Origin: a virus
Virus record (IMG/VR): IMGVR_UViG_3300049001_000024
Location: 1 to 49,632 of that record
Reading direction: 5' to 3' (one strand)
DNA: 49,632 nt
Both the position numbers and the translations under genes were made by a program. Within the stretch, counting starts at the first letter, position 1. Each line of letters begins with the position of its first letter. The notes beneath the pieces were generated by a model that made no database searches, had not been told where the DNA came from, and saw only the letters and a list, made by a program, of their open reading frames with translations. Below are positions 2,632-48,476 of the stretch, in pieces.

Positions 2632-3414
2632 CTATGCTGCGGGGATGGATGTTTGCCGGGCGTCTGCGGGAGGTTCTTGCTCGCTGTCTTCCGCTTCGCG
2701 CTCCTCCACTTTGATTTCATTGGAGGTGGCGACTTCACCCCATGCCGCTATCAGTTTAGCCGCATCAGGGAATGAAATCCAAGCGCGTCCTTTTTCCCGG
2801 CCCCAATCGGTGCCCCAGCTATTCTGCATGCGGAACGCACCCAGCGATCCATCGGGGCATTTCTTCTTGAGGCTTCCACCGATGATGTCGTAACCGTGGC
2901 CACCCGCGATTGATCCGGCGACGTGGATAAATCCGTGGGAATCGGGCACGCTCATGCCACTGTACCAATCGGTGCCGAATACCACTGGCCCATGCTCCAA
3001 CACAAAGGCAATGGCGGTGTCCACGTCCGTGGCCCAGTTATAGACGCTGACAAATCCTTTGGCTTGCAGGACCTTGAATAATGCGCGCACGCTGGTGCCC
3101 TCGTGCGGCTGATCCTTCCACTCATCCACCTTCTGGCATTCGTTGTATAAATCCTGCGGCGTCTTCCATGGCTTGTTCTTCACCGGCGCATCCATCAGGA
3201 AGCCTTCACCGGCAAAGGCCACGCATTGCGGCGTGTCGCCTTGATCGAGGACCTGTCCCACACGCCAATAGCGAGATGTGCGAGTGGGGGCTTTAGTGGG
3301 GCGCTCCAGCATGTAGCCGCGATCCCGGAAGTCGATGGCGGGGAGGCGTCCAAATCCTTTGCCAGTGAGTGAGAGAGTTTTATCGTGGGCAGCGTGCTTG
3401 GTAGGTAGGGTCAT
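2632..3414 (-). CDS. Papain-like (C1A fold) cysteine protease
   Basis: The 260-residue protein carries the papain signatures in order: oxyanion Gln58 and nucleophile Cys64 in DQGDTPQCVAFA (spacing of six, as Gln19/Cys25 in papain), His173 in GGHGYDIIG, and Asn198 in NSWGTDWG. The catalytic set is therefore complete. There is no signal peptide and only about 45 residues precede the catalytic core, so the usual inhibitory propeptide is absent and the enzyme would act in the host cytoplasm or be carried with the virion. The last 30 residues are acidic and probably disordered. The start overlaps the upstream stop as ATGA. Candidate roles are cleavage of a host protein or of a phage precursor; the substrate is unknown. 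Confidence 0.9.
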   Translation of the reverse strand: MTLPTKHAAHDKTLSLTGKGFGRLPAIDFRDRGYMLERPTKAPTRTSRYWRVGQVLDQGDTPQCVAFAGEGFLMDAPVKNKPWKTPQDLYNECQKVDEWKDQPHEGTSVRALFKVLQAKGFVSVYNWATDVDTAIAFVLEHGPVVFGTDWYSGMSVPDSHGFIHVAGSIAGGHGYDIIGGSLKKKCPDGSLGAFRMQNSWGTDWGREKGRAWISFPDAAKLIAAWGEVATSNEIKVEEREAEDSEQEPPADARQTSIPAA

Positions 3415-5615: not shown

Positions 5616-6431
5616 CTATGCTTGTGCGCCTTGCTCTACCTGCGCTTCGGCGTGCAATTCTTCCAGCGTTTCTTTCGTCGGCTGGACGCGTGTGATCGTT
5701 TCGTTTCCCTCGTGACGAGATAGCGAGCCATCTCTTTCACGCCACCAAGGCTGTTCAACCACCGTGATCTTTTCCCCAGTTTTCTTGTCAACCTTAGCGT
5801 AGGGCTTTTGGGGGGCGGTGGAGGTAACCACACCAGTCTCGGAGTCCCAAAAGCGCCACTGTACCAAACCCCGAAACACCCGTTGCTCACCTTCCGCTTC
5901 TTGCAACAGCGCGAGGATGTCGGATGACTTTTTCTGCGTCTGCTTGAATTTGCGCATCTTGCCCAGCGAGAAAAGCAGCTCATCGACGCGTGAGCTTTCC
6001 ATCTTCCCGGACCTGAACGTGGTGGCTTGGCAGAATCGAATCGTCTTGCCGGGTTGATTGTGCTCATCCAGCACGGTGGCGGTGTAGTTGAATTGCGCCC
6101 ATGTCTTGTCCTTGATGGGAGCATTCTGCACCGGCTTTTCCTTCTCCAGCGCGAAGATGAAATTGTGGAATTTGCCCGGCGTGAGCGATGGCGCGTAGGC
6201 CATGCGCTTTTCCATGTCCTGTTCATCGACATCCGCGACCGGCTCGGTAATCATATCCAGCTCGGCAATGTCGGTGACCACGCCGCTGGCTTGCTGATCG
6301 GTGGCAGTGGATTCCTCGTGACCAACTCCAGATGTGTCAAGTGGATCGTCTTGTGGCTGTGGCTCAGACTGGGGGGATGCAAGCTCCTCCACTCCAGCAG
6401 CAAATTGGGTGTTCTCATCATCAGTTCTCAT
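5616..6431 (-). CDS. Hypothetical acidic protein, possible ssDNA-binding partner
   Basis: The protein is 271 residues. The first 75 are rich in Asp, Glu, Gln and Ser and look disordered. The middle (residues 85-220) alternates beta strands and helices (KTWAQFNYTATVLDEH, RVDELLFSLGKMRKF) and could be an OB-like domain. The C-terminus is again acidic. It is encoded just downstream of a Sak4-like ATPase and a RecB-like nuclease; loci of that kind often carry a single-strand DNA-binding protein. That role is inferred from position only. ATG 6431 follows a GGAGG site. Confidence 0.75.
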   Translation of the reverse strand: MRTDDENTQFAAGVEELASPQSEPQPQDDPLDTSGVGHEESTATDQQASGVVTDIAELDMITEPVADVDEQDMEKRMAYAPSLTPGKFHNFIFALEKEKPVQNAPIKDKTWAQFNYTATVLDEHNQPGKTIRFCQATTFRSGKMESSRVDELLFSLGKMRKFKQTQKKSSDILALLQEAEGEQRVFRGLVQWRFWDSETGVVTSTAPQKPYAKVDKKTGEKITVVEQPWWRERDGSLSRHEGNETITRVQPTKETLEELHAEAQVEQGAQA

Positions 6432-37602: not shown

Positions 37603-39501
37603 TTGCCAGCCGCCGCGCAAACCGGCCATCGTCTCATTGATGACATGGCCATTCCTTATGTCACTTTTGATTCCCCGGTGGCGGACACCCCCGCATTTGA
37701 AGATGGATTGAATATCTTGACATCCATGCGGCGCGTGCTGGAACGCAGGCCGGGGTTCGCTACTCCAGTAGAAGCCAGCGTTACTAATCTGCCCGGCACC
37801 ATCAATAACATCTTCACGTGGCGGCGCTGGAGTAGCAGCTTTTTTGTGATGTTGTCCATTGCGGCTAATGGCCACAGCCAAGTATGGAAGCTGGAGCTGG
37901 GCGTGGATGCGTCCTTTTCCCTGCTGCTGGATATCCCCGGTACCACGGAACCATTCAGTTTCATTGCGCGCAATAACTTCTGTTTCATGGGCTGCGGTGT
38001 TGCGGGGTCCATGCAGAAATTCGGTGGGCGTGGCGCGCAGGGAGAAAACTGGATCACTGGATGGGGCATTGCAGCTCCCACGTGGAAGCCAGTCTGTACA
38101 GCGGTTGCAGTGGGCGCCGGGTTGAATGGCATCAATTGCCAAGTGGATTACCACTATCGCTGCACCTATTGTCACGAGCTGGTAGGTGGCGAATCCAGTC
38201 CATCAGATTTGAATGAATGCATTGGCCAATTCACCAACAGCGGCGTGCAGGTGCAGCTCAAGGCCAGCCCCGATCCGCAGGTGGGCCATATTCGCGTCTA
38301 TCGCTCGCGGGATGGAGGCTCGACCGATCCCCAACAGATGCAGGAAATCGTGGGATCACCATTCTTGAATGCCGATCAGACCATTACGGACCGCACCGAG
38401 GATGCAGATTTGCACAACCGTTTTGCTCCCGGCCTGCTGCGCAACGATCCCCCGCCACCGATGAAAGGCTTTCAATCTCACAGCTCGCGCATTTTCGGAT
38501 TCGCGGATAACGTGGTTTGGTTCTCCGGCTTCGATGAAATCGTGAACGGCATGATGGAAGAATGTTTCCCCGGCGCCAGCATTGGTCCTATTGCGTCCAA
38601 CTCCGGCAATTGGTATCCATTCGATGATGAAATCAGCGCGCTAGCCCAAATCGCAGGGGACGCGCCCGGCATGGCAGTTTTCATTCCCGGCAGCGTATCC
38701 AAGATCGATGGCGCCATTCGCAATGAGATGACGCGCTACACCATTGATGAGCTACATGGTGCGCGCTCTCCGCAGGCAGTCCGCGGATTGGGATCGGATG
38801 TGGCATGGGTGGACACCGCAGCGCAAATCCGGCTATCCAGCGTGGGTGAGATGAGCACCGACATCCGCCCCGATGCAGCCAAGATCAATCCATCTAATGC
38901 CATGGTGGTGGCCCACGTATCCGGCACTAAGCAGTGGGTATGTGTTTTGGACACTATCACCGGCATCCTGTACGTCCTCGATATGGATTTGAAAATCTGG
39001 ATGGTGCCATGGAAGATCGGTGCATCTGCCATCTGGAGTGGTGAGATCGCACCCGGCAAGCGCGTGCTCATGGCGGCGATCAACAATCAGGTTTGGTACA
39101 TGACGGATGGGAAATTCAACGATGCAGGCCAATCGTATGCCGCGTTCGGGAAGACGAACCTAATCCCACTTTCTCCGCAAAACAATCCTGATGAGGTGCA
39201 AACGCTGGATGCGGTGTCCATCGAACGCGACCGCAACAATGTGTCCGATATCCGCGTGCTGGTGGATGAGAACACCAGCTTGGATTCCGCTTACAAAACC
39301 ATCTTCCTCAAGGAAAATGAAAGCGATCCCAGCATGCGCGCAGCGGGCAAGGTTCTCATTGAAAAGCGCTATACCATCCCGCCCGATCAGTTCTCACCAG
39401 CACGCCGGGGCAGCGTTCGGATAGACTGGCCAGCAGTAGATGCACCGTTTGAGCTGTACTCGATCAACGTGGAGATTCATCCAGTGAGTGGAGAGCAATG
39501 A
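37603..39501 (+). CDS. Tail nozzle (tail tubular protein B-like)
   Basis: The start is TTG 37603, five bases after GGGAGG; ATG codons further in are possible. The 632-residue protein opens with NILTSMRRVLERRPGFAT, the usual start of podovirus nozzle proteins, and continues as repeated beta blades (FCFMGCGVAGSMQKFGG, IFGFADNVVWFSGFDE, WVCVLDTITGILYVLDMDLK), as in a beta-propeller. T7 gp12 and P22 gp10 are of this type and form the DNA exit tube. This is the best evidence for a short-tailed particle. Confidence 0.78.
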   Translation: MPAAAQTGHRLIDDMAIPYVTFDSPVADTPAFEDGLNILTSMRRVLERRPGFATPVEASVTNLPGTINNIFTWRRWSSSFFVMLSIAANGHSQVWKLELGVDASFSLLLDIPGTTEPFSFIARNNFCFMGCGVAGSMQKFGGRGAQGENWITGWGIAAPTWKPVCTAVAVGAGLNGINCQVDYHYRCTYCHELVGGESSPSDLNECIGQFTNSGVQVQLKASPDPQVGHIRVYRSRDGGSTDPQQMQEIVGSPFLNADQTITDRTEDADLHNRFAPGLLRNDPPPPMKGFQSHSSRIFGFADNVVWFSGFDEIVNGMMEECFPGASIGPIASNSGNWYPFDDEISALAQIAGDAPGMAVFIPGSVSKIDGAIRNEMTRYTIDELHGARSPQAVRGLGSDVAWVDTAAQIRLSSVGEMSTDIRPDAAKINPSNAMVVAHVSGTKQWVCVLDTITGILYVLDMDLKIWMVPWKIGASAIWSGEIAPGKRVLMAAINNQVWYMTDGKFNDAGQSYAAFGKTNLIPLSPQNNPDEVQTLDAVSIERDRNNVSDIRVLVDENTSLDSAYKTIFLKENESDPSMRAAGKVLIEKRYTIPPDQFSPARRGSVRIDWPAVDAPFELYSINVEIHPVSGEQ

Positions 39502-40592
39502 GGGCTGACACCGCCAACATCGACCGCATGCGGCGCGTTAAGGTGAATGGTCAATGGAAATTCGTTGACACGCTGGAAGTGAAGCTGCGCAAGATACAGA
39601 AGACTACCGATGTCAATAAATTTCATGGCATCGTGCTTCCCACGCCATCTCTGTATCGCCCGGTGCCCAAGGCAATCATCAGTGCAAACGCTTCGCAGGT
39701 TGTGCTGGCATCCTCCGGGATCGCGGTGGCAGGCAGCTTCGCGGACACCATTGATGACGCTGGTTTCACGCACGTACCCACGCAGAATTCCACGGTCATT
39801 TATTGGGATGGCACCAACCAATCGCGCCGCATCGTGCGCCGCCGTGCCGATGGATTCAAGCAGCCATTGCCACCGGGGCATCTTGCCATCACTAATCTAC
39901 CCATGGGCGCGGAAGGTGCGCCGGGTCCAACTTACTTGCTCTATCCCTATGGCATTCCCGGTGCATGCAACATCGGCTGGGTAGTGGGTGACGTGGGCAC
40001 GCCTAAATTCTGTCACCTGAAAGCCACCAATGACGCCGCGCACCAGCAGCGCATTCTTGGCCGGGAGCCGATATCCGATGGCGCCATGGCAATTCAGCTC
40101 TTGCCAGTACAACCTCCAGCGCCACCACCTGATCCCACCTTGCCACCCCCGGACCCGCCACCGCCGCCAGCTCCAGCGCCGGTGACTGATCCCACGGCGC
40201 CGCCCACCTACACCCCGCCACCCGTGCCGCCCGGTGGCACCACGTATTGCGTCATGCTGGGTACGGAGATTGTCCCCATCGGTGACTCGCCGTGGTGGAC
40301 TGAGGAAGTGCAACAAAACGAATGGGTGCAAGTCATCACCAACTTGCGTCAGTTAACCGGCGTGCCGGAACACATCATGGTCACTGGGCGCGCTGGCTAC
40401 ACTGAGATGCGAGATATACGCAAAGGCGATCTTGTCATCACCTGCTGGGGTGAGGAAAAAGTGGAGCGTACCTCCTATTTCAAGCGTCCCGGAATCAAAG
40501 TTAATTTGCACATGGAATGGGGCCATCTGGCATGGTTCAATGGATTCCTTGGACACAACTTAAAGAAGTCGAACCCGGATTCACTTTTATAG
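39498..40592 (+). CDS. Tail protein with a C-terminal Hint (intein-like) domain
   Basis: The 364-residue protein has an N-terminal virion-like domain (1-200), a linker of nearly pure Pro/Ala/Asp/Thr (203-248), and a C-terminal domain with Hint landmarks. Cys251 opens block A (CVMLGTEI, the usual C-x-x-x-G-T-x-I/V form). A central IRKGDLVITCWGEEKV follows. The end reads IKVNLHMEWGHLAWFNGF, then LGHN (His353-Asn354), the block F/G pattern. Only ten residues follow Asn354, so splicing to a C-extein seems unlikely; N-terminal cleavage or cross-linking of the upstream part is more plausible. The start overlaps the nozzle stop as ATGA. Confidence 0.8.
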   Translation: MRADTANIDRMRRVKVNGQWKFVDTLEVKLRKIQKTTDVNKFHGIVLPTPSLYRPVPKAIISANASQVVLASSGIAVAGSFADTIDDAGFTHVPTQNSTVIYWDGTNQSRRIVRRRADGFKQPLPPGHLAITNLPMGAEGAPGPTYLLYPYGIPGACNIGWVVGDVGTPKFCHLKATNDAAHQQRILGREPISDGAMAIQLLPVQPPAPPPDPTLPPPDPPPPPAPAPVTDPTAPPTYTPPPVPPGGTTYCVMLGTEIVPIGDSPWWTEEVQQNEWVQVITNLRQLTGVPEHIMVTGRAGYTEMRDIRKGDLVITCWGEEKVERTSYFKRPGIKVNLHMEWGHLAWFNGFLGHNLKKSNPDSLL

Positions 40593-40599
40593 AGGGAGC

Positions 40600-41079
40600 A
40601 TGAGCCGAGATATCTTCGTTCGCAGCTTGCAAGGATCGCCACAGCAAAATCCCCGGATCGCCAAAGCAGTGGAATGGCTGGCGCGCATCCGCGAGCAATC
40701 CCATCTCGATACGGACGTACTCACCTATCCCGCCACATGCATGTTGGAGGCTTACATAAAAGGGACTGGCGAGCCGGTTTTGTACATGCCGATCCAGCAC
40801 GTTTACATGATGGAATCGCTAGGACCGAATCCCGTTGCCAGCCCAGTGGATATCGCCAAAGGTTTGGAGGAAATCACCAAGATACTGAGTTATGATGCCC
40901 ATAAATCGGGCATTGGGGAAATCTACTATCCCAGCACGGACCCGATGGTGAATGCATTTGCGCAGCGTCATCATTTCTCATTGATGGACTACGAGGCACC
41001 ATGCGCAGTGAGCGAACAGAATCCCAGCGGCATGGAAAAGCGGCTGATCCCGTTCTTCAAGATGAAGGTGTACAAGTGA
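40600..41079 (+). CDS. GNAT-like hypothetical protein (159 aa)
   Basis: The alpha/beta pattern (TCMLEAYIKGTGEPVLYMPI, then IGEIYYPSTDPMVNAFAQRH-HF) resembles GNAT N-acetyltransferases, including the late F-x-x-x-H-x-F element, but the acetyl-CoA loop is not convincing. GNAT-like proteins occur beside tail genes in several phages. The stop overlaps the next GTG start as GTGA. It may modify a virion or host protein. Confidence 0.65.
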   Translation: MSRDIFVRSLQGSPQQNPRIAKAVEWLARIREQSHLDTDVLTYPATCMLEAYIKGTGEPVLYMPIQHVYMMESLGPNPVASPVDIAKGLEEITKILSYDAHKSGIGEIYYPSTDPMVNAFAQRHHFSLMDYEAPCAVSEQNPSGMEKRLIPFFKMKVYK

Positions 41080-44649: not shown

Positions 44650-45795
44650 TCAATCAAGCATCATTGGACTGACACCGATAGTCAAACTCCCACCAGTGAT
44701 CGTCCCACTCGTCCCATCTAGTTTGTGCCAGTGCGTATAGGTAGTGGAATACGCGGAATTGCCCGCTGTGTTCCATACGAACTGCGATGGGATATTGCCG
44801 CTGCGAGTGACGTTGCAAGTCCAGCGCGTGCCGGACGCGATACAAGCGGATGGCGTGCTACCAGTGATCCAGTCGCGCATCAGACCATACGCGGTGCCAG
44901 CCGGTCGGATGCCTCCGGTGTACCACCATAACGTGCCCCATGTCTGTTCATCCCAGCCGTACCAAACGAAACGATTGACGATGCCGCCGTTGCCGCCAGC
45001 CTGCAACAGATACATCTTGGCAACTACATCGGCTTCCTTGGCAAGATCAGGATAGCTGGCATCGCTGCCCCATGAGCCTTCCGTATCCCATAACGATTTG
45101 TTGCCTACGCCGCGATTGGTCATCACGGTGCGCATGTTCTGCACCAGCGTAGGTAGCGAAGTTTCCACTGTAGTAGGTGATACATAACCGTGGAAAGTCA
45201 CGATGTTGGACAGTGGCCCACCGCCAGCGGCGAGATATCCATCCATCCACGTGTATGCATTCGGGCCTTGTGGAGCTGGTGACAATACCAGCGCAGTGGG
45301 GTCGATATTCTTGATGATGGTGTAGGCTCGCTGCGCCATGGTCACGAGCTGCGCCGTGGTGCCAGTCCAAAAGTTGGTGGCATTGGGTTCATTCCAAATC
45401 TCCCAATACTTGATGCGACCGGCGCTATGGGTCACGATGTTGGTAACAAAATCGTCCCAATCCTGCAAGTTGTCGGGCTGCTTAGTGTCATTGGGAACGG
45501 CTTGCGACCATGCAGGAGTGTGACCAAAGGTGTAGATCAAATCCAGTCCATGCGTGCCCGCTCTATCCATGAACGCATCGAGCTTGGCATAGTTGTACAC
45601 GCCACGCGCCGTCTCGATGGCTTTCCATGAGCACGTATCACAGTCCCAAATACGTTGCGTGCCAAAATTAACGGTGGGCCATGTCACCGTGGATGACCAC
45701 ATGTGCATGCCGAAGAATCGTGAAGTGATGGTTGATTGTGGAGATGCGGGAATCGATACAGCAAGTGCGAGTAGGATGCACCAAAGGTGTTTCAT
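44650..45795 (-). CDS. Secreted clan GH-A glycoside hydrolase (GH39/GH5-like)
   Basis: The 381-residue protein has a signal peptide (LWCILLALAVSIPASPQ, cleavage near residue 20) and a TIM-barrel with the clan GH-A signatures. KYWEIWNEPN supplies the acid/base Glu136, and SLWDTEGSWG supplies the nucleophile Glu239. FGHTPAW and TFHGY mark other barrel strands. The last 70 residues are a small beta domain. It would be exported by the infected cell to the periplasm or outside and cut a polysaccharide. It is the last gene of the leftward run that also encodes the DNA polymerase, so it is probably made before lysis. The substrate is unknown. Confidence 0.85.
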   Translation of the reverse strand: MKHLWCILLALAVSIPASPQSTITSRFFGMHMWSSTVTWPTVNFGTQRIWDCDTCSWKAIETARGVYNYAKLDAFMDRAGTHGLDLIYTFGHTPAWSQAVPNDTKQPDNLQDWDDFVTNIVTHSAGRIKYWEIWNEPNATNFWTGTTAQLVTMAQRAYTIIKNIDPTALVLSPAPQGPNAYTWMDGYLAAGGGPLSNIVTFHGYVSPTTVETSLPTLVQNMRTVMTNRGVGNKSLWDTEGSWGSDASYPDLAKEADVVAKMYLLQAGGNGGIVNRFVWYGWDEQTWGTLWWYTGGIRPAGTAYGLMRDWITGSTPSACIASGTRWTCNVTRSGNIPSQFVWNTAGNSAYSTTYTHWHKLDGTSGTITGGSLTIGVSPMMLD

Positions 45796-45815: not shown

Positions 45816-48476
45816 TTATGTCGGTTGGTGGGCGTCAATCTTGGACATGATGCGCCAGTTGTCTCCTATCTTCACTTCCACGTCCACCGCCAAGCCAGTG
45901 GGTGCAGTGACAGGATCGATCAACACCGGGCTGGGCAGGATCATTTGCGCATGGATGCGTTCAATGCATTCATCCACCAGCGCATTAACTGGGTGGAAGA
46001 AAAGAGAATCGTGGATGGTGTTCACTAATTCAAATCGTGCGTCCAATTCCGTATCCCGCAGCCAAAGGAATTGCTCATTCATGTGGCCGAATGCATCGTT
46101 GACGTGATTGAAGCACAGCGCCGCTTCTGAATCCTCACCCGGCACGAGTTCCTTGGTGTCACCATTCCAGTGCATGACATCGAAGAACCAGCGAATGTAG
46201 CCAAAACGCGTGGTCAAATAGGTGCGCTCATGGGCCTCCCGCCGTCTTCGATTCTGATACTGGAAGACTTCCGGGAAAATACCGCGTATGGTGTCAAGCA
46301 ACGTCTTCGCTTCCTTCTCTCCCTCAAAAAAATCACTGTACTGGCGATAGAGCTTGCGGTAACCAAGGCCATTGCCCACACCAAGGATGGCATGCTTCGC
46401 TTTGTTATCACGCGTCTCACCATATTTCTCCTTTACCCATGCAAGATATTCCTTGAGCTGGTCATCTGGCCAGTCTAGGAGCTGATCGCGCTCCGGGAGT
46501 TTCAGGAAATGCGCGGTAGTGAAGGAATGGATGTCAGATCGGGCAAGCCGCATCCAGTTGACCGATTGGGCCTCGAATGCCAACGTCACCGCATGGAACG
46601 CGCTGAAATCGAATTCGATGAGCTTGTGGCCTTCCTTGGCCCGGATCATCTCGCGCATCTTTTTCGCAATGGCTTTGCGCTTGGGGAAATTCTGCGCATT
46701 GGGACCCTTGGAATTGAGCTGGCCCACTGGCGTGCCATGATTGAAGCTGGGATGCACACAACCATCAGGCCCCGGCGTCCAACCCAGCACGTAAGTGGAT
46801 CGCATCTTCTCGTGCTCGCGGTAATTGAGCACTAGCGGCAACATGGGGTCCTTAGTCTTACGGATGAGCTTGAGCAATTCATTTTCTTCCGTGGTCAAAT
46901 CTTCGCTGCGGTATTTCTTGGGCACCGCGTAGCCCTTGCGCGGGAATTTCTCTTTCATGTATTCGATGTACTCGATCACCTGATCCCGCGATCCCGGATT
47001 GAATGGAACCTGCTGGCACCAGCGAATCACTGGAGCATCGAACATGTCCTGCTGATTAGGGTCCTTCACGTGTTCTGAAAAATCCCGCTGGATCAATCCA
47101 GTCTTATCCTTGGGTGGGCGCACGTAACCATTGGGCGGGTGGAATTTAATCAACTCCGTGGGCCATAGCGCCTGTGTTTCTTCGCGCACCCGTTCGCGCT
47201 CTGCGGTAAGCTCCACATCCAACTCTTGCCGCTTGACATCATCGATGGGAATGCCACGCCGGGTCATGCCCAGCAGGATGGGTTCACGTCCCAAGATGTG
47301 ACGCTCGTATCCGCGCCACACGTCTTTTTTCTTGAGCTGATCGGGGCAGCGCGCCATGATGCGAGACACTGCATCACCATCACCGCATCCATAGAATTCT
47401 TCGTCATACTGCGCCAGATGCTTCCACGGAAATGGCATCTCGTAAAAGCTGGCCACGAATTGCAGATGTGCCGGAAGATCAGGTTGGAGATGGTGCCACA
47501 TCCAGCGCGTGTCATGCACGATGCCAGCGACCGTGGCGCCCTCACGCTTGAGCACCGGCAGATCGAAGCGCCACGCATTGTGCCCTGCTTTCACGTGTTT
47601 CATCATCAGAATGCGCTTGGCTATAGATTTGAATGGCTCACGCCACGGCATGGCGATAGCTTTGCCCACGCCAAGCGAGAATTGAATCTGTGAAATCTGC
47701 CCGGCGTCGATCTCCAGTTGGACATCATCATCCGCGTCTTCATCCACGAACATGGAGTTGTCAGTCTCAATATCGAACGCCAGCAATGCAGCCAGCGAGT
47801 CCGCGCACAGCAACTCAAAGGACCGCGCTTCCTCCGTGGTCACCTTGGTTTGATATTGCACGTAGCGCCCAGCTTCCAGATCAGGACGCAGGCAGAAATT
47901 GGTGAGCTTGCCGGATGCAATGGAGATGGCCTTGCGAATATCCGCCACCAGCACGTTTATCAAATTAGGCTTGCCCCGACGCAGGTAGGAAGGATGGAAG
48001 CTGGGCACCACTGGGATGCCGCCCCAATCCACACTGGGTAGGACATAGCCCCGCAAATATGTGATTCCACGTGACTTACCAGCTTGCCCGGTGATGGTGC
48101 GCAGGGCTACATTGCCCAGCGCAAGGATGGCGCGGGGTGGTTGCTCTTCCACGATCCGGTCACGGTGGACTTGGCAGTGGGCGATGGCGCCTAGCTCCCA
48201 CGGCGCTCCTTCCAGCCAGTCACGCGGCGGCTGGCAGTTGACGATGTTGTAAAGGCGGAATTGCTGGCGATCTAGCCCGCACATGCCGATGGTGCGCTCC
48301 AGCAGCGAGCCAGCTTGTGCGTAGGGGCGGAATGGTTTGCCATCTCGCGCTTCGCTCGCGCCTAGCGCTTCACCGAATACCAGCACGCCCAATGAGCCAA
48401 GGCCCTCCGGCTGACTGAATCCGGTGGCCTTGTCATCGAGCGCGCATCCTCTGCACTCAAATGGACGAGATAGCAT
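45816..48476 (-). CDS. Uracil-DNA glycosylase fused to family A DNA polymerase
   Basis: The protein is 886 residues. Residues 1-190 form a family 4-type uracil-DNA glycosylase: Cys8, Cys11, Cys81 and Cys101 in the iron-sulfur pattern, GEALGASEARDGKPF (35-49), NIVNCQPPRD (77-86) and PSFHPSYLRR (158-167). Residues 225-400 are a 3-5 exonuclease (FDIET 234-238, HNAWRFD 299-305, YGCGDGDA 362-369). Residues 550-886 are a family A polymerase: motif A EFDFSAFHAV (Asp623), motif B from RDNKAKHA (689-696), and motif C TIHDSLFF (Asp823, with Ser where HDE has Glu). It would copy the genome and remove or sense uracil in one chain. Its start overlaps the DUF1643 gene by 20 bases. Confidence 0.9.
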   Translation of the reverse strand: MLSRPFECRGCALDDKATGFSQPEGLGSLGVLVFGEALGASEARDGKPFRPYAQAGSLLERTIGMCGLDRQQFRLYNIVNCQPPRDWLEGAPWELGAIAHCQVHRDRIVEEQPPRAILALGNVALRTITGQAGKSRGITYLRGYVLPSVDWGGIPVVPSFHPSYLRRGKPNLINVLVADIRKAISIASGKLTNFCLRPDLEAGRYVQYQTKVTTEEARSFELLCADSLAALLAFDIETDNSMFVDEDADDDVQLEIDAGQISQIQFSLGVGKAIAMPWREPFKSIAKRILMMKHVKAGHNAWRFDLPVLKREGATVAGIVHDTRWMWHHLQPDLPAHLQFVASFYEMPFPWKHLAQYDEEFYGCGDGDAVSRIMARCPDQLKKKDVWRGYERHILGREPILLGMTRRGIPIDDVKRQELDVELTAERERVREETQALWPTELIKFHPPNGYVRPPKDKTGLIQRDFSEHVKDPNQQDMFDAPVIRWCQQVPFNPGSRDQVIEYIEYMKEKFPRKGYAVPKKYRSEDLTTEENELLKLIRKTKDPMLPLVLNYREHEKMRSTYVLGWTPGPDGCVHPSFNHGTPVGQLNSKGPNAQNFPKRKAIAKKMREMIRAKEGHKLIEFDFSAFHAVTLAFEAQSVNWMRLARSDIHSFTTAHFLKLPERDQLLDWPDDQLKEYLAWVKEKYGETRDNKAKHAILGVGNGLGYRKLYRQYSDFFEGEKEAKTLLDTIRGIFPEVFQYQNRRRREAHERTYLTTRFGYIRWFFDVMHWNGDTKELVPGEDSEAALCFNHVNDAFGHMNEQFLWLRDTELDARFELVNTIHDSLFFHPVNALVDECIERIHAQMILPSPVLIDPVTAPTGLAVDVEVKIGDNWRIMSKIDAHQPT

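What the first reader, a model, noticed from the sequence alone, without database searches (positions are those of the whole stretch)
39498..40592. Hint (intein-like) domain at the end of a tail protein
Cys251 in CVMLGTEI opens a Hint block A, and the protein ends with the F/G pattern including His353-Asn354, after a nearly pure Pro/Ala linker. Only ten residues follow, so classic splicing is unlikely. Self-cleavage at Cys251 could release or cross-link the virion domain during assembly or entry.
Basis: partly seen in the sequence, partly recalled or inferred. Interest (0 to 1): 0.75.

Follow-up and report, generated by a model that had tools for sequence, protein, structure and literature searches.

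The report
Intein-like self-cutting domain on phage tail
A tail protein of an uncultured phage ends in a very small but complete intein-like (Hint) domain that keeps its main catalytic residues but has nothing to splice to, so the tail protein probably cuts itself free of it; related phages carry the same optional add-on.

Summary
Window 39498-40592 encodes a 364-aa tail protein ending in a Hint domain: Cys251, block-B His292, block-F His343, His353-Asn354, then ten residues. No library matched it alone. A degenerate DNA pattern uncovered a hidden family in viral contigs and Acidobacteriota genomes: a 'YWDGT' domain, a flexible linker, then usually a C-terminal Hint. In 26 aligned Hint domains the Cys, block-B His and His-Asn are invariant. 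A profile built without the window scores it at 2.8e-25. The family profile hits solved BIL domains and inteins (to 1.2e-12). AlphaFold gives pLDDT 90, with Cys251..Asn354 superposing on whole inteins (Z 13-14). There is no splicing nucleophile, real C-extein, toxin or sterol region, so it is a BIL-like autoprocessing domain, not an intein, Hedgehog or pretoxin domain. At 104 residues it is compact. Hint-less homologues sit in the same gene slot and end inside the linker, so cleavage before Cys251 would give a naturally occurring form. Best explanation: self-cleavage at Cys251. Whether the thioester is hydrolysed or captured by another molecule is open; activity is untested, and the block-B Thr is Val here. 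New variant of a known kind.

The parts
39498..40592 (+). tail protein gene, 364 aa, with C-terminal Hint domain
39750..40094 (+). YWDGT domain, about residues 85-199, beta-rich; ends with the motif REPISDGAM
   Evidence: 31% identity over 128 aa to the end of gpJ-like L100; conserved in the family
40104..40247 (+). Pro-rich linker, residues 203-250 (25 Pro of 48)
   Evidence: Gly-rich in most relatives
40248..40559 (+). compact Hint domain, Cys251 to Asn354, 104 residues
40248..40250 (+). Cys251, block-A nucleophile
   Evidence: invariant in 26 domains; superposes on intein residue 1
40362..40373 (+). block B, Val289-Pro-Glu-His292 (TxxH in 23 of 26 domains)
40524..40526 (+). His343, block F
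   Evidence: present in 25 of 26
40554..40559 (+). His353-Asn354, block G
   Evidence: invariant in 26 domains
40560..40589 (+). ten-residue tail LKKSNPDSLL, +1 is Leu
   Evidence: low model confidence
37603..39501 (+). upstream tail/connector-like protein, syntenic in relatives
40600..41079 (+). downstream acetyltransferase-like gene (by eye only), syntenic in relatives
   Evidence: no Pfam match

Best explanation
The gene encodes a tail (host-contact) protein of a podovirus-like phage: an N-terminal part, a beta-rich 'YWDGT' domain, a Pro-rich linker and a compact C-terminal Hint domain of the bacterial intein-like (BIL) kind. The Hint domain catalyses an N-to-S acyl shift at Cys251 and then cleavage of the Tyr250-Cys251 bond, most simply by hydrolysis. 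This sheds the Hint domain and leaves a mature protein of about 250 residues ending in the linker, the same form as homologues that are encoded without a Hint domain. His-Asn may also cut off the ten-residue tail; splicing is not expected. Shown by computation: fold, catalytic residues, family, gene order, presence and absence among relatives. Inferred: the cleavage, its timing and its purpose.
For: Cys251, His292 and His353-Asn354 invariant in 26 Hint domains at about 13-39% identity to the window. Profile matches to BIL4 1.2e-12, gp41-1 1.9e-10, BIL2 3.6e-9 and, for the close group, NrdJ-1 intein 2.2e-6. AlphaFold pLDDT 90, pTM 0.83; Cys251..Asn354 aligns to residue 1..last of inteins, e.g. 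Mtu RecA Z 13.8, 102 residues, 1.6 A. No Cys/Ser/Thr at +1 in any of 26, the pattern of BIL domains, which mainly cleave (PMC7664689). Hint-less relatives L130 and L132 keep portal type and gene slot and end in the linker. Hint presence changed at least three times on the YWDGT tree; a single Hint-less clade is rejected.
Against: Block-B Thr is Val289 in the window, which may weaken the acyl shift. No cleavage data exist. Without a sterol region or +1 nucleophile the second substrate is unknown. Retention of Asn354 is not needed for N-terminal cleavage alone.
Confidence: 0.6

Rival explanations
1. Thioester transfer: the thioester at Cys251 is attacked by an amine or hydroxyl on another virion protein or on the host surface, so that the tail protein becomes covalently attached through the end of its linker, as Hedgehog attaches to cholesterol.
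For: Same active site would do it; Hedgehog structures align at Z about 13; long flexible linkers precede the Cys in all members.
Against: No acceptor or recognition domain follows the Hint (ten residues only); no conserved partner gene found only with the Hint; Hint-less relatives exist.
Confidence: 0.15
2. The domain keeps the Hint fold but is catalytically weak or dead here, and serves as a structural or binding cap at the tip of the tail protein.
For: Block-B Thr replaced by Val289; the window and L124 are the longest branches of the close group in the Hint tree.
Against: Cys1, both active-site His and the His-Asn pair are all kept; a dead domain would be expected to lose some of them.
Confidence: 0.17
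3. Asn354-driven C-terminal cleavage or low-level BIL-type ligation is the selected activity, trimming the short tail or joining it to the linker.
For: His-Asn invariant in 26; Terriglobia-group tails are conserved (Y-[TN]-F-x-S).
Against: Tails vary freely in the close group and the window's tail is poorly ordered in the model; it does not explain the invariant Cys.
Confidence: 0.06
4. A selfish intein inserted near the end of a tail gene.
For: Intein fold and His-Asn end.
Against: No C-extein, no +1 nucleophile, no room for an endonuclease in 104 residues; always C-terminal behind a linker, on several kinds of protein.
Confidence: 0.02

Closest known systems
Bacterial intein-like (BIL) domains, A type (C. 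thermocellum BIL4 2lwy; Tetrahymena BIL2 6y75)
   Same: Best profile and Foldseek matches; Cys1, block-B His, His-Asn, no required +1 nucleophile (PMC7765530)
   Different: On a phage tail protein, at the very C-terminus, 104 residues against a 138-residue BIL4 chain; block-B Val instead of Thr
Inteins (gp41-1, Mtu RecA, NrdJ-1; phage terminase inteins)
   Same: Whole-domain superposition with Cys1 and terminal Asn in register
   Different: No +1 Cys/Ser/Thr and no C-extein
Hedgehog autoprocessing (Hog) domain
   Same: Fold, Cys nucleophile, C-terminal position
   Different: No sterol-recognition region; ends in His-Asn
Pretoxin HINT (PT-HINT) of polymorphic toxins
   Same: Hint behind a secreted or adhesive stalk; some members match PF07591; release role proposed in PMC3482391
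   Different: No toxin follows the Hint here
Vint (PF14623) and Hint-bearing proteins of uncultured Caudovirales
   Same: Hint of relative L100 reaches the Vint cut-off, 27.3 vs 27 bits; BFVD has phage proteins named 'Hint domain' or 'Fibronectin type III' that match the fold
   Different: The window protein has no Vint match; I found no paper on the tail arrangement

Membership tests
Hint superfamily | Hint (horseshoe) beta fold over the whole domain | tested here: met
   pLDDT 90; Z 13-14 over 102-113 residues; Foldseek 2.3e-6
Hint superfamily | Cys/Ser nucleophile at the start of block A | tested here: met
   Cys251, invariant in 26
Hint superfamily | block-B His (TxxH) | tested here: met
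   His292, invariant
Hint superfamily | block-B Thr (TxxH); common, not obligatory | tested here: not met
   Val289; Thr in 23 of 26 relatives
Hint superfamily | sequence-profile homology to known members | tested here: met
   single-sequence Pfam search negative
A-type BIL domain | His-Asn end without +1 Cys/Ser/Thr | tested here: met
A-type BIL domain | type-specific sequence motifs | not tested
   no A-type profile at hand; BIL4 is the best PDB match
A-type BIL domain | autocatalytic cleavage | not testable with these tools
   needs protein chemistry
Intein | C-extein with +1 nucleophile | tested here: not met
   +1 Leu and ten residues only
Hedgehog / Hog | sterol-recognition region after the Hint | tested here: not met
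   ten residues follow
PT-HINT | C-terminal toxin domain after the Hint | tested here: not met
   ten residues follow
Vint (PF14623) | score above the Pfam cut-off | tested here: not met
   no match for the window; met by relative L100
Phage tail protein | syntenic slot among tail genes / tail homology | tested here: met
   same slot in relatives; module ends a Phage-tail_3 protein
Phage tail protein | presence in virions | not testable with these tools
   uncultured record

The most novel reading that the evidence does not exclude
A phage tail protein uses a Hedgehog-like thioester at Cys251 to attach itself covalently, through its linker, to a nucleophile on another virion protein or on the host surface during assembly or adsorption.
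Probability: 0.12. Interest if true: 0.85.

Novelty: new variant of a known kind. Interest (0 to 1): 0.57.

Why it matters
It points to self-processing of phage tail proteins by an intein-type domain, a use of Hint chemistry for which I found no description in the papers searched. The module is optional, terminal and found on tail proteins of different architectures, and its key residues can be tested with simple mutants. The 104-110-residue Hint domains are shorter than the solved natural mini-inteins and BIL domains matched here (about 125-170 residues), so if active they could be useful minimal cleavage or ligation tools.

Tried and rejected
Direct searches with the window protein found nothing: Pfam, PHROGs, NCBIfam, PDB sequences, phage records, viral and genome contigs. 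Scans with the neighbouring tail protein and the capsid protein were empty. A search of 50 records of the broad set of portal relatives found no member of this family, Tunturi_3 included. A 46%-identity hit in G005 lies in a 60-aa chance frame. A full-length AlphaFold job on eight rows was weak (pLDDT 54), though its Hint region already matched inteins; its YWDGT part matched SPP1 gp22 only weakly (Z 4.5). Sampling 396 Acidobacteriota genomes gave one already known member and L153. Exchange of Hint domains between tail proteins (L124's two domains group differently) is suggestive but not significant (p-AU 0.119). A truncated or frameshifted C-extein was considered and rejected: the next gene starts seven bases after the stop codon and is syntenic in relatives. 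Intein, Hedgehog and pretoxin readings fail their defining features.

Full report
Observation. The ORF at 39498-40592 encodes 364 residues with Cys251 in CVMLGTEI, His353-Asn354 and ten residues after the Asn. The linker (203-250) is Pro-rich, 25 of 48 residues, rather than nearly pure Pro/Ala. The stop codon is followed by another gene at 40600, so the Hint is truly C-terminal.

Finding the family. The protein is an orphan by ordinary searches. The window carries an SU10-type portal (PF23899, 3.6e-26) and a Phage_capsid_4 capsid protein, which suggests a podovirus-like phage. A guess, from memory of phage proteins, that YWDGT ... YPYW marks a module was turned into a degenerate DNA pattern. 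It matched nine viral stretches, two of which (L097 and L100, near-identical) encode a 1346-aa gpJ-like tail protein (Phage-tail_3, phrog_1101) ending in the same order: YWDGT domain, short motif, Gly linker, Hint. Its YWDGT domain aligns with the window at 31% identity over 128 residues. An alignment search then gave 16 Acidobacteriota genome loci and 20 viral loci. Six viral relatives (L124, L129, L131, L133-L135) have the closest Hint domains.

Is it a Hint domain? In 26 aligned Hint domains the Cys, block-B His and His-Asn are invariant, and the block-F His is in 25. A model built from relatives only scores the window at 2.8e-25; the best decoy scores 0.42. The family profile finds BIL4 (1.2e-12), the gp41-1 intein (1.9e-10), Tetrahymena BIL2 (3.6e-9), other inteins and Hedgehog in the PDB; the close group alone finds the NrdJ-1 intein at 2.2e-6. 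Members match Pfam Intein_splicing, Vint, Hint and PT-HINT weakly, though the window itself does not. Relative L109 finds Caulobacter phage inteins by tblastn at 3e-3. AlphaFold on the 26-row alignment gives pLDDT 90 and pTM 0.83. Solved Hint structures fill the list at Z 10-14, with Cys251 on intein residue 1 and Asn354 on the last residue; Foldseek ranks BIL2 and BIL4 best.

What is unusual. Cys251 to Asn354 is 104 residues; the close group is mostly 104-110 (L131 is 126) and the Terriglobia group 130-140. The shortening lies between blocks A and B. The block-B Thr is Val289 in the window and Thr in 23 of 26. Position +1 is never Cys, Ser or Thr. No toxin, sterol region or real C-extein follows.

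Tail location. In relatives the order is connector or tail protein, YWDGT protein, acetyltransferase-like gene, internal-protein-like gene (L107, L119, L129, L131). L129, L134 and L135 carry the same portal type as the window. L130 and L132 have the same portal type and slot but no Hint, and their proteins stop inside the linker. On the YWDGT tree, Hint presence needs at least three changes, and holding the Hint-less rows as one clade is rejected (p-AU 0.0005). The tree is short (131 columns) and has long branches. The Hint is therefore an optional C-terminal module, and cleavage before Cys251 would give a form that other phages encode directly. This is the main argument for release by self-cleavage, and it is indirect.

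Mechanism. A conserved Cys1, block-B His and His-Asn without a +1 nucleophile is the A-type BIL pattern; BIL domains produce mainly cleaved products (PMC7664689, PMC7765530). The expected steps are the acyl shift at Cys251, thioester hydrolysis and optional Asn cyclisation. A thioester captured by another molecule, or an inactive domain, remain possible. Nonsynonymous change is well below synonymous change among close relatives, with synonymous sites near saturation.

Known or new. Hint domains, BIL domains and phage inteins are well known. BFVD already holds uncultured-phage proteins named 'Hint domain' or 'Fibronectin type III' with this fold. In nine paper searches I found no description of a C-terminal Hint on phage tail proteins, but the library is partial. 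The family showed no tail-protein member among 50,697 phage records at the sensitivity used.

Noticed in passing
window 45816-48476 (-): A uracil-DNA-glycosylase-superfamily domain (PF03167, 9e-14) fused in front of a family A DNA polymerase (PF00476, 1e-27) in one 886-aa ORF.
   Followed up: no
window 44650-45795 (-): Glycosidase-like protein (GH5 4.7e-7, GH10 5.5e-7) with a signal-peptide-like start.
   Followed up: no
window 2632-3414 (-): Papain-like peptidase by eye (QCVAFA, GGHGYDIIG, QNSWGTDWG); no Pfam match at 0.01.
   Followed up: no
window 40600-41079; also L086, L087, L119, L129-L133: Acetyltransferase-like small gene (by eye) kept directly after the tail-protein slot in many relatives; no Pfam or PHROG match.
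   Followed up: partly
L153 (G110 C24:162140-162421): An ORF of 725 aa in an Acidobacteriota genome with a Gly linker and C-terminal Hint but no YWDGT domain seen.
   Followed up: partly
L101-L128 Hint tails: The five residues after His-Asn are conserved (Y-[TN]-F-x-S) in the Terriglobia group, though a cut after Asn would release only them.
   Followed up: no
L130 about 5860-6290; L133 1469-1918: HNH-like endonuclease ORFs (by eye) sit close behind the YWDGT gene slot.
   Followed up: no
L100 7682-11719: The gpJ-like tail protein also has a carbohydrate-binding module (CBM_5_12, 7.9e-6) ahead of its YWDGT-Hint end.
   Followed up: no
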